Positions 35,806 through 48,821 of a stretch of 64,000 bases of DNA are shown here, in pieces. Position 1 is the first letter of the stretch. Every line of letters begins with the position of its first letter. This DNA is from Flintibacter muris (lineage in GTDB: Bacteria; Bacillota; Clostridia; Oscillospirales; Oscillospiraceae). The position numbers and the translations under genes are program-made. The notes beneath the pieces are model-generated. The model saw nothing but the letters and a program-made list of their open reading frames with translations. It was not told the DNA's origin and did no database searches. The stretch covers positions 1 through 64,000 of the forward strand of contig NZ_CALPCP010000014.1 of NCBI RefSeq assembly GCF_943192995.1, read 5' to 3'.

Positions 35806-35956
35806 TTAAGGCTTCCCCCCCTCAGGGGGGAAGCTGGCGCCGCCGCAGGCGGCGGCTGATGAGGGGGCTGCGGAGGTGCTGAGCCTCTCAAGAACTCACC
35901 CTCATCCGCCCCAGTGTGAGCACTGGGGCACCTTCCCCCTGGAAGGGGGAGGCTTA
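35806..35956. repeat. Composite palindromic repeat between groES and groEL
   Basis: Terminal hairpins GGCTTCCCCCCTCAGGGGGG... and ...CCTTCCCCCTGGAAGGGGG enclose inner hairpins (GCCGCCGCAGGCGGCGGC; CCCCAGTGTGAGCACTGGGG) and opposed TGATGAGGG / CCCTCATCC boxes. Same design as at 58041 and 60700-60910. It fills the 178-bp groES-groEL gap. Confidence 0.75.
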
Positions 35957-36292: not shown

Positions 36293-36319
36293 TTAGCACT
36301 TAAAAGTTTCGAGTGCTAA
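36293..36319 (-). promoter_or_regulatory. CIRCE operator (HrcA site)
   Basis: TTAGCACTT-N9-GAGTGCTAA, one mismatch from the CIRCE consensus, about 50 nt before groES and just past the predicted transcription start. HrcA binding here represses chaperonin genes until heat shock. Confidence 0.92.
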
Positions 36320-36330
36320 CTCTGTTTAAG

Positions 36331-36359
36331 ATAATAACCTCTTCCGGCAAAAAAATCAA
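36331..36359 (-). promoter_or_regulatory. groES promoter
   Basis: -35 TTGATT (36354-36359), 17-bp spacer, -10 TATTAT (36331-36336). The -35 is built from the outer arm of the terminator at 36350-36391. Confidence 0.7.
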
Positions 36360-36391
36360 CCCCCAATTTCAAAAAATCGGGGGTTGATTTG
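36350..36391 (-). terminator. Terminator upstream of groES
   Basis: AAATCAACCCCC and its complement, separated by about 13 nt, followed on the minus strand by TTTTTTTG. It stops transcription coming from the right, including the putative antisense RNA from the promoter at 36723-36751, before the groES promoter. Confidence 0.8.
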
Positions 36392-36716
36392 AAAGGTTTT
36401 ACATTTCGTTCACAAACAGCCTTTCGGAGTGCTAAATTCGTGGAGCTTGCAAGGGCTGTCGGGCTATACTACCATTAAGCAAGAGCAGGCAGGGCCAATC
36501 CTCAGCAAGTTCCAGGAGGTGAGGCCGGTGAGCGTAGGCGAGATCCTGACATTACATTTGCTCATCATTGCGGCGATCACTTTGGTAATCACTATCGGAC
36601 GGCACCTAAAGAAGCAGCCGCCCCCTAACCCCAGTAAGAAGACGGCATTTTCTCAAGCTATAAACTTGTCTGAAGATTGACTGTCTTCCAGCTGCAACCT
36701 GGTTGACCGCCCTCTT
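36370..36716 (-). ncRNA. Candidate antisense (antitoxin) RNA
   Basis: A perfect consensus promoter on the minus strand (see 36723-36751) starts about 36 nt past the stop of the 50-aa membrane protein and reads antisense across it to the terminator at 36350-36391. No sensible minus-strand reading frame is present. Convergent placement downstream of the toxin-like ORF is like TxpA/RatA type I systems. Boundaries are inferred; a shorter RNA is possible. Confidence 0.4.
36528..36680 (+). CDS. 50-aa single-helix membrane protein, holin-like/type I toxin candidate
   Basis: MSVGEILTLHLLIIAAITLV then ITIGRHLKKQPPPNPSKK and a polar tail: one membrane helix (about 6-24) followed by a basic stretch, the layout of holin-like and TxpA-type peptides. 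The GTG at 36528 is preceded by AGGAGG at 8 nt, which favours it over the earlier frame from 36429. A -10 TATACT lies at 36465-36470 with a poor -35, leaving a leader of about 50 nt. An antisense promoter faces it. Confidence 0.5.
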   Translation: MSVGEILTLHLLIIAAITLVITIGRHLKKQPPPNPSKKTAFSQAINLSED

Positions 36717-36722
36717 GCGCAT

Positions 36723-36751
36723 ATTATAACTTTATCCCTCCGCTTTGTCAA
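36723..36751 (-). promoter_or_regulatory. Consensus antisense promoter
   Basis: Minus strand TTGACA (36746-36751), exactly 17 bp, TATAAT (36723-36728). It overlaps the end of the HTH gene by a few bases and reads toward the 50-aa ORF. No minus-strand gene other than groES lies ahead, and groES has its own promoter behind a terminator. Confidence 0.75.
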
Positions 36752-36990
36752 GCCGTCCCGTCCGGGGCGGCTTGGTTCATTTCCCGGCAGTCCGTCCGGC
36801 CCAGAAGGTAATCTGTGCTGACGTTGAAGTAGTCCGCCAAAAAGACCAGGCCGTCAAAATCCGGGCAGCTGGTGGCATACTCATAGCATTGATAGCCACG
36901 CAGTTTTAGGCCACAGATTTCCGCCATTTCACGCTGTTTCAGGCCCCGCTCCTGGCGTAGTTTCTTCAAACGTTCAGAAAATTTTATCAT
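36748..36990 (-). CDS. Small XRE-family regulator
   Basis: 80 residues. HTH region KKLRQERGLKQREMAEICGLKL then RGYQCYEYATSCPDFDGLV, ending VSTDYLLGRTD. I start at the ATG at 36990 with GGAGG 6 nt upstream. Divergent from the frameshifted small gene at 37072. May also influence the toxin-like locus just downstream. Confidence 0.82.
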   Translation of the reverse strand: MIKFSERLKKLRQERGLKQREMAEICGLKLRGYQCYEYATSCPDFDGLVFLADYFNVSTDYLLGRTDCREMNQAAPDGTA

Positions 36991-37007
36991 AAAATACCTC
37001 CAGGCAC

Positions 37008-37036
37008 TTGACACGCATAATCTTTACATATATTAT
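37008..37036 (+). promoter_or_regulatory. Promoter of the small gene at 37072
   Basis: TTGACA (37008-37013), 17 bp, TATTAT (37031-37036), in the gap between the divergent HTH gene and the small gene. Confidence 0.7.
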
Positions 37037-37071
37037 AGACGCATAGTTGTTACATAAAAGGAGCCGCAAAC

Positions 37072-37334
37072 ATGAATCCTATGCTCAACATCCTATTCCT
37101 TGACAACCCTCACATTCCAAAGCAGGTCCGCGCATTTTGCAACCCCTCCCGGAGTACCGGGAGGCGGAACAGGTCTTTCGGGCCGCAGAGCAGGAGCTTG
37201 AAAGGCGGTTGGGCTATGAGGTATTCAACCGGTTCATTGAAGCGCAGTCCCACTACACAGCCCAGCAGACCCACGCCTATTATCTTTTCGGCCTGGGTCT
37301 GCGTCAAGAGGTCTTATCGGCGCTGGTGGGCTGA
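37072..37334 (+). pseudogene. Small unknown gene split by a one-base frameshift
   Basis: AAGGAG lies 8 nt before the ATG at 37072, which opens MNPMLNILFLDNPHIPKQVR then AF. The frame then runs into nonsense-looking sequence, while the next frame continues with LQPLPEYREAEQVF...RRLGYEVFNRFIEAQ...AYYLFGLGLRQEVLSALVG to the stop at 37334. One extra T in the TTTT tract at 37135-37138 would join the halves (RAF-LQPLPEYRE). So it is either a recent frameshift, a sequencing slip or slippery translation. Family unnamed to me. Its end overlaps the convergent lipid kinase gene by 31 nt. Confidence 0.6.
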
Positions 37335-48666: not shown

Positions 48667-48786
48667 TCCGCGAAACAAAAAACCTCCCGTCGCAAGACAG
48701 GAGGACAGCACAATCAAAGCATATTCCTTTGAAAGCACTCTCGGCAGGAATTACGCCCGTAAGGGCCCCTGCTGTCTTTGAACGCA
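48667..48786 (-). ncRNA. Ribosomal protein L10 leader
   Basis: About 120 nt of leader before rplJ with the layout of the Firmicute L10 leader: a long imperfect stem, the conserved internal loop region near CCGAGAGTGCTTT, and a terminator at its end (CCTCCTGTC-TTGC-GACGGGAGG then TTTTTT; 48675-48704). L10(L12)4 binding would favour termination and so balance L10/L12 synthesis. Confidence 0.85.
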
Positions 48787-48792
48787 AAGCGG

Positions 48793-48821
48793 ATTATATC
48801 CCAGAGCGGAGAAAATGTCAA
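48793..48821 (-). promoter_or_regulatory. rplJ promoter
   Basis: TTGACA (48816-48821), 17 bp, TATAAT (48793-48798) on the minus strand: full consensus. Confidence 0.88.

What the first reader, a model, noticed from the sequence alone, without database searches (positions are those of the whole stretch)
36350..36751. Candidate type I toxin-antitoxin locus beside groES
A 50-aa single-helix peptide with a basic tail (GTG at 36528, AGGAGG at 8 nt) is faced by a perfect sigma-A promoter on the opposite strand (TTGACA-17-TATAAT, 36723-36751) starting about 36 nt past its stop. The antisense transcript crosses the whole ORF and meets a strong terminator at 36350-36391. No minus-strand protein gene explains that promoter, since groES has its own promoter behind the terminator. 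This matches the TxpA/RatA and holin-like type I layout. A small hairpin (GTCTTCCAG...CTGGTTGAC) sits at the overlap. The peptide does not match a known toxin family closely by eye.
Basis: partly seen in the sequence, partly recalled or inferred. Interest (0 to 1): 0.75.

Follow-up and report, generated by a model that had tools for sequence, protein, structure and literature searches.

The report
Eroding type I toxin-antitoxin module
Beside the groES heat-shock gene of a gut bacterium lies a worn copy of a family of tiny membrane-peptide genes, each faced by an antisense RNA that probably silences it, and whose messenger RNAs are predicted to fold shut end to end.

Summary
The peptide at 36528 belongs to a multi-copy family in gut Oscillospiraceae and relatives. 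Intact modules have a 25-30 aa single-helix peptide with a lysine-rich end, a Shine-Dalgarno hairpin and a facing antisense promoter. Of 38 loci scored, 38 carry that promoter at 10 or more of 12 consensus positions. The reading frame is under purifying selection.

Three details change. (1) The natural peptide is 29 aa: close relatives stop there, and the window reads on into the 3' untranslated region. (2) The antisense RNA probably ends near 36608 and overlaps only the 3' part of the message; the 36354-36389 palindrome belongs to groES and occurs without the module. (3) The window copy looks eroded (stop, promoter spacing, RNA fold).

New: the two ends of the toxin mRNA are complementary and co-vary between loci (0 of 20000 permutations as good, again in 17 loci not used to notice it). 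This predicts a closed, inert message as in hok and AapA1. I saw no report of this for Firmicutes in ten searches of an open-access library. No transcript, translation or toxicity was tested.

The parts
36447..36470 (+). toxin promoter, apparently broken: TTGCAA at 36447-36452 and TATACT at 36465-36470 are 12 nt apart
   Evidence: coordinates; the groES-side relative L005 has 17 nt, most other relatives 17 or 18
36479..36492 (+). 5' arm of the end-to-end closing stem of the toxin mRNA (weakened here)
   Evidence: covariation
36493..36526 (+). hairpin that hides the Shine-Dalgarno sequence (GGCC..CCTC / GAGG..GGCC)
   Evidence: mean SD pairing probability 0.74, 0.82 and 0.83 in the three groups of 17, 17 and 4 loci (no shuffle control for this measure)
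36528..36614 (+). toxin peptide proper, 29 codons, GTG start, single hydrophobic helix then RHLKK
   Evidence: homologues end here; pN/pS 0.39 over 17 loci
36615..36680 (+). read-through tail: in the frame only because relatives' stop at codon 30 is a sense codon here; next stop at 36678-36680
36605..36717 (-). [quoted passage not shown]
   Evidence: model R1 hit 36603-36729 minus (the window is one of the sequences the model was built from); fold (z -1.95, 6 of 200 shuffles as good)
36608..36646 (-). conserved hairpin with U-rich tail, likely terminator of the antisense RNA
   Evidence: not listed by the terminator scan
36723..36751 (-). antisense promoter TTGACA-17-TATAAT
   Evidence: 38 of 38 loci at 10 or more of 12
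36707..36718 (+). 3' arm of the closing stem; on the minus strand it is the 5' end of the antisense RNA
36750..36782 (+). G+C hairpin followed by a U-rich stretch, candidate terminator of the toxin mRNA
   Evidence: by eye, coordinates; the scan lists only a shorter stem inside it (36762-36775)

Best explanation
This is a chromosomal type I toxin-antitoxin module of a Hol-Tox-like kind found across the window's order, and the window carries an eroded copy. In intact members a short mRNA encodes a 25-30 aa membrane peptide with a lysine-rich end. A strong facing promoter makes an RNA of about 110 nt, complementary to the 3' end of that mRNA, which probably triggers its decay as RatA does for txpA. 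The mRNA is also self-silencing: its Shine-Dalgarno region lies in a hairpin, and its 5' end pairs with its 3' end. Because the antisense 5' end has nearly the same sequence as the toxin mRNA 5' end, the two compete for the same 3' arm. Shown by computation: selection on the ORF, promoter conservation, stem covariation. Inferred: transcription, toxicity, decay by RNase III, and erosion of the window copy.
For: Homologues in the genus (16 of 64 genomes at E up to 0.1, some chance) and by RNA model in 13 of 64 genus, 25 of 400 family and 13 of 394 order genomes (several weak family hits are chance). Antisense promoter 38 of 38. pN/pS 0.39 in frame, 0.82 and 1.34 in the other frames. Own 5'-3' pairing beats permuted pairing: 0 of 20000, 17 of 20000 and 0 of 20000 in two subgroups, 0 of 20000 in 17 new loci. 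Pair counts exceed shuffled and slid controls (on a structure derived from the same alignment). The ten close relatives with a whole toxin ORF all keep the antisense promoter, and four loci that lost the toxin 5' half keep it too (three by the scan, L023 with one mismatch by eye). Window differences from relatives.
Against: No transcript, translation or toxicity data. Most of the 38 loci were found with a model of the antisense RNA that includes its -10, so only the -35 and the ORF are independent of that search. For single loci the own 3' end is often not the best partner, and only 19 of 38 beat all but one of 100 shuffled 3' ends. The U-tract after the antisense hairpin is poor. The window mRNA (z -1.12), L007 (-0.74) and the second own-genome copy L053 (-0.12) fold hardly better than shuffles (one search gives z -0.97 for the window). 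No curated family recognises the window peptide.
Confidence: 0.8

Rival explanations
1. The window copy is still a working toxin: the 50-aa read-through peptide is toxic and transcription starts from another promoter.
For: The antisense promoter is perfect, start and SD are intact, the helix and RHLKK are kept; differences from L006 are mostly at third codon positions (3, 1, 9). A weak TTCACA-18-TAAATT site lies at 36409-36438.
Against: The DNA of that upstream site is shared groES upstream DNA in genomes without the module. The -35/-10 spacing is 12, the stop of relatives is lost, and the fold is weak. A glycine present in the 16 relatives as aligned is valine, though the placement of a four-codon insert there is ambiguous; the three 29-codon relatives have the glycine. 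The tail is the conserved RNA of the 3' UTR, not a conserved peptide.
Confidence: 0.25
2. The matching ends are terminal inverted repeats of a small mobile element that spreads the module.
For: Many loci, different neighbours, remnants in the genus.
Against: The promoters lie outside the repeats yet are conserved. The repeats differ in sequence between lineages while matching within loci. Arm mismatches favour G-U over A-C, 13 against 4, p = 0.049, besides 11 transversions. I did not test for target duplications.
Confidence: 0.15
3. The conserved product is the antisense-strand RNA acting as a small regulatory RNA, and the ORF is incidental.
For: Loci that lost the toxin 5' half keep the promoter and RNA.
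Against: Frame-specific purifying selection on the ORF and a conserved SD and start.
Confidence: 0.07
4. Chance ORF plus chance promoter beside groES.
For: The peptide alone matches no curated family.
Against: Recurrence in many genomes at different sites with all parts in register.
Confidence: 0.02

Closest known systems
Hol_Tox, PF16935 (putative holin-like toxins)
   Same: Short single-helix peptide with a basic C terminus. Relatives L036 and L056 touch the model weakly (14.1 and 15.9 bits). Loci that read as Hol-Tox-like by eye (L003, L016, L048, L050) have the same antisense promoter and predicted end pairing, weaker in L016 and L048 (0.53 and 0.60).
   Different: The window peptide and L005, L008, L020, L053 list no hit to the model at E up to 10; cut-off 23.3 bits.
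txpA/RatA and bsrG/SR4 of Bacillus subtilis
   Different: No sequence match in the curated libraries tried; the end-to-end closing stem is not mentioned in the passages that I read.
Clostridioides difficile CD2517.1/RCd8 and prophage modules
   Same: Small hydrophobic peptide with lysine-rich tail, convergent overlapping antisense RNA, multi-copy (PMC6563280 sections 2 and 3; PMC7699646 passages).
   Different: Those peptides are 34-59 aa, many in prophages. I did not compare sequences directly; the review reports no homology with toxins of other bacteria.
hok/Sok and aapA1/IsoA1
   Same: 5'-3' long-distance pairing of the toxin mRNA that makes it inert, plus SD hairpins (PMC6733600 and PMC8167048, passages read).
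   Different: Other phyla; no peptide comparison was made; 3'-end processing was not tested here.
par (Fst, RNA I/RNA II) of pAD1
   Same: Convergent RNAs with repeats at the two 5' ends (PMC8167048 passage).
   Different: par has direct repeats and a shared bidirectional terminator; here the repeats are inverted, so they pair within the toxin mRNA.

Membership tests
type I toxin-antitoxin system | small hydrophobic peptide under coding constraint | tested here: met
   pN/pS 0.39 in frame against 0.82 and 1.34; peptides
type I toxin-antitoxin system | RNA antitoxin transcribed antisense to the toxin mRNA | tested here: inconclusive
   promoter conserved in 38 of 38 loci; transcript not observed
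type I toxin-antitoxin system | peptide toxic, RNA neutralises it | not testable with these tools
   needs an expression experiment
Hol_Tox PF16935 | score above the Pfam cut-off of 23.3 bits | tested here: not met
   window peptide no hit; the window locus is not among the two own-genome hits of the model, both below the cut-off
par/Fst | direct repeats at the 5' ends of both RNAs | tested here: not met
   the ends form an inverted repeat
hok- or AapA1-like mRNA closure | 5' end of toxin mRNA pairs with its 3' end | tested here: met
   computed only: closing probability above 0.85 in 34 of 34 non-Hol-Tox loci against 6 of 68 shuffles of them; covariation
hok- or AapA1-like mRNA closure | 3' processing opens the mRNA for translation | not testable with these tools
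   needs RNA probing and toeprints
txpA/RatA | sequence homology of the toxin | tested here: inconclusive
   no curated-library hit; no direct pairwise comparison was made

The most novel reading that the evidence does not exclude
Hol-Tox-like type I modules across the window's order use a hok/AapA1-type closed mRNA. The antitoxin RNA's 5' end imitates the toxin mRNA's own 5' end, so the antitoxin and the closing stem compete for the same 3' arm. Loci that lost the toxin may keep the antitoxin as trans-acting immunity against other copies.
Probability: 0.45. Interest if true: 0.72.

Novelty: new variant of a known kind. Interest (0 to 1): 0.55.

Why it matters
The ten members given to Pfam and NCBIfam match no curated model above its cut-off, so these genes are probably unannotated in gut commensals. 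If the closed-mRNA control is real, the strategy known from hok and AapA1 has an equivalent in Firmicutes, with natural covariation to guide tests. The groES-side copies also give a series of intact, eroded and remnant states for studying how such modules die.

Tried and rejected
The 36354-36389 palindrome as module-specific antisense terminator: rejected, since it occurs upstream of groES without the module; it could still stop read-through here.

Membership in Hol_Tox, PADLOC or PHROG families: no significant match (the best PHROG rows are E 0.064 to a membrane protein for L008 and E 0.095 to a holin for L048). Plasmid and phage records: no DNA match. Two IMG/VR contigs carry relatives (L074, L075); whether they are true phages was not checked.

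Rows dropped. From, L015, L017, L019 and L026 were judged unrelated by eye; L018 was not read; L022 and L025 are second pieces of L005 and L014. From, L027 and L028 repeat L008 and the window; L037, L044, L045, L046, L047, L049, L051 and L057 were left out as plain terminators or lacking a matching ORF; L054 because its 5' side is cut; three listed places had no locus and were not read. From, loci on the same contigs as earlier ones were not scored again. In one search, L066 (spurious ORF) and L067, L071 (repeats of L029, L024) were dropped; L003, L016, L024 and the window were added by hand; loci without a scored ORF (L010, L014, L038, L058, L064, L065, one of two in L072) were left out. Of the 20 loci read, one search used 17 (L113, L138 without ORF and L120 dropped; L135, poorly assigned, was kept and fails), and one search used 16 of them without L135, with 38 distinct arm pairs counted out of 54.

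RNAalifold on the more diverse half (A4) found almost no structure because the alignment of the ends fails; the permutation test was used instead. The outermost stem of model R1 pairs the -10 itself and is not credible as RNA. When 3' ends were swapped within a subgroup the closing stem mostly still formed, so closing probability alone does not show covariation. Ten paper searches were made.

Full report
What is in the window. The peptide, its ribosome site, the facing promoter and the palindrome are present as described. The facing promoter is the only 12-of-12 site in 5.5 kb. I see no minus-strand protein gene that it serves: the 38-codon frame there begins at 36722, directly after the -10 and before the expected start of transcription. 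The helix-turn-helix gene (36751-36990 without its stop, HTH_3 at 8.8e-10) lies behind it, its last codons overlapping the -35.

Relatives. A protein search of 64 genomes of the genus found matches in 16 at E up to 0.1. Reading them shows eleven loci with a whole toxin frame, counting the window, and four remnants that lost the toxin's 5' half (L010, L014, L021, L023). The ten intact relatives end in a lysine pair at 25 or 29 codons; the window reads on. Five of these fifteen lie beside groES (the window, L005, L007, L011 and the remnant L014), the others elsewhere. An exact scan with a 26-base conserved motif gave 16 stretches in genome contigs, titled Lawsonibacter, Oscillibacter, Colidextribacter, Oscillospiraceae, Bacillota or uncultured bacterium; several of those contigs match genus genomes by length, so I infer a Lawsonibacter-like host. 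Two IMG/VR contigs matched as well.

Antisense side. From 15 loci I built a model of the antisense RNA. It matched 25 of 400 family genomes at E up to 0.01 (several weak ones are chance), 13 of 64 genus genomes with 27 matches at E up to 0.001, and 13 of 394 order genomes. In 38 loci with a readable toxin frame the facing promoter scores 10, 11 or 12 of 12 in 3, 13 and 22 loci; single-base shuffles of the region reached 10 in 5 of 760 and never 11. The -35, which is hardly represented in the model, is exactly TTGACA in 32 of 38 and has at most one mismatch in the other six. The spacers between the hexamers differ, so the hexamers are what is kept. The antisense RNA has a 5' stem with compensatory changes and a 3' hairpin with a U-rich tail, which predicts an RNA of about 110 nt ending near 36608.

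The groES palindrome. A search with the groES start and upstream DNA matched 59 of 64 genomes, some only in the coding part. Of 30 fetched loci, 20 carried the anchor sequence; 15 of those 20 have no match to the antisense model, and their DNA still holds the palindrome region, degenerate in some such as L087 and L099. Fragments of the module remain in L082, L085 and L086. So the palindrome is part of groES, and I infer that modules at this site have decayed repeatedly.

Coding. Over 17 loci and the shared codons, differences at codon positions 1, 2 and 3 are 898, 526 and 1403; pN/pS is 0.39 in frame and 0.82 and 1.34 in the other two frames. The peptide is conserved as a peptide.

Ends of the toxin mRNA. 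In many loci the first bases after the toxin -10 repeat, inverted, just before the antisense -10. The sequence differs between lineages but matches within a locus. Mean duplex energy is -27.1 for own pairs and -22.9 (sd 0.55) for permuted pairs, 0 of 20000 permutations reaching it. Within the window's own subgroup the effect is weaker (17 of 20000), in the more diverse subgroup 0 of 20000. For single loci the own partner is often not the best, and 19 of 38 beat all but one of 100 shuffled 3' ends. In 17 loci read only after the idea was noted it is again 0 of 20000, and 0 of 20000 in nine diverse ones, although one of them (L135) shows no pairing. Closing probability is above 0.85 in 34 of 34 mRNAs outside the Hol-Tox-like four, and above 0.5 in 38 of 38; of 68 shuffles of the 34, 6 exceed 0.85 and 17 exceed 0.5. 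Swapping 3' ends within a subgroup mostly keeps the stem, so that measure alone does not show covariation. Pair counts on 17 sequences exceed shuffled and slid controls, with the caution that the structure was derived from the same alignment; in the closing helix 3 of 9 pairs have changes on both sides. Arm mismatches favour G-U over A-C, 13 to 4, p = 0.049, with 11 transversions besides, which fits RNA pairing a little better than DNA repeats. Toxin mRNAs fold better than shuffles (mean z -4.5; 35 of 38 below -2).

The window copy. It departs from relatives in the stop after codon 29, in the 12-nt promoter spacing where L005 has 17 and in fold strength (z -1.12; z -0.97 with 37 of 200 shuffles as good). 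A glycine present in the 16 relatives as aligned is valine here; the gap placement there is ambiguous, but the three 29-codon relatives have the glycine. I read this as erosion of the toxin with the antisense promoter still perfect. The genome also holds a second copy with its stop in place (L053) and a Hol-Tox-like locus (L003).

Literature. The review that I read counts experimentally validated type I modules in Clostridia only in C. difficile (PMC6563280 sections 2 and 3; PMC7699646 passages). 5'-3' closure is described for hok and AapA (PMC6733600 and PMC8167048 passages). A holin-like toxin with a mapped transcription start is reported in C. acetobutylicum (PMC9045289, passage), and holin-like toxins are listed among small membrane proteins (PMC10903887, passages). 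In the ten searches no listed title or abstract start dealt with such closure in Firmicutes or with type I modules in Oscillospiraceae; most listed papers were not read, and subscription papers and T1TAdb itself were not available.

Verdict. A member of a real type I-like family, probably eroded at this site, with a conserved end-to-end mRNA pairing that deserves an experiment.

Noticed in passing
L003 1402-1682 (own genome, contig C5 near 91686): A Hol-Tox-like peptide gene with facing antisense promoter TTGACA-16-TATAAT and a strong inverted repeat over its stop codon; below the PF16935 cut-off (16.9 bits).
   Followed up: partly
L053 1502-1726 (own genome, contig C3 near 215298): Second copy of the module in the same genome with its stop in place, but its mRNA folds no better than shuffles (z -0.12).
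   Followed up: partly
36425-36439: A lone GAGTGCTAA, which looks like half of the groES operator motif at 36293-36319, is kept beyond the palindrome in groES upstream regions of the genus, with or without the module.
   Followed up: no
36990-37334: Helix-turn-helix gene (minus) facing a short plus-strand ORF behind a TTGACA-17-TATTAT promoter at 37008-37036; by eye the HTH gene also follows the module in L005 and L011.
   Followed up: no
L078 and L086, beside groES: The toxin's 5' half is replaced by a palindromic GTAGGGGCCGCC..GGCGGCCCCTAC stretch that looks like an inserted repeat element.
   Followed up: no
35815-35955: Long G+C-rich palindromic stretch between groES and groEL that looks like a dispersed repeat.
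   Followed up: no
48667-48799 minus: Ribosomal protein L10 leader (Rfam RF00557, 50.5 bits).
   Followed up: no
L010, L014, L021, L023: Loci that lost the toxin 5' half but keep the antisense promoter and RNA; possible orphan antitoxins.
   Followed up: partly
L024 and L075: A genome locus and an IMG/VR contig share both promoters letter for letter but differ in the toxin peptide, as if module parts had been exchanged.
   Followed up: no
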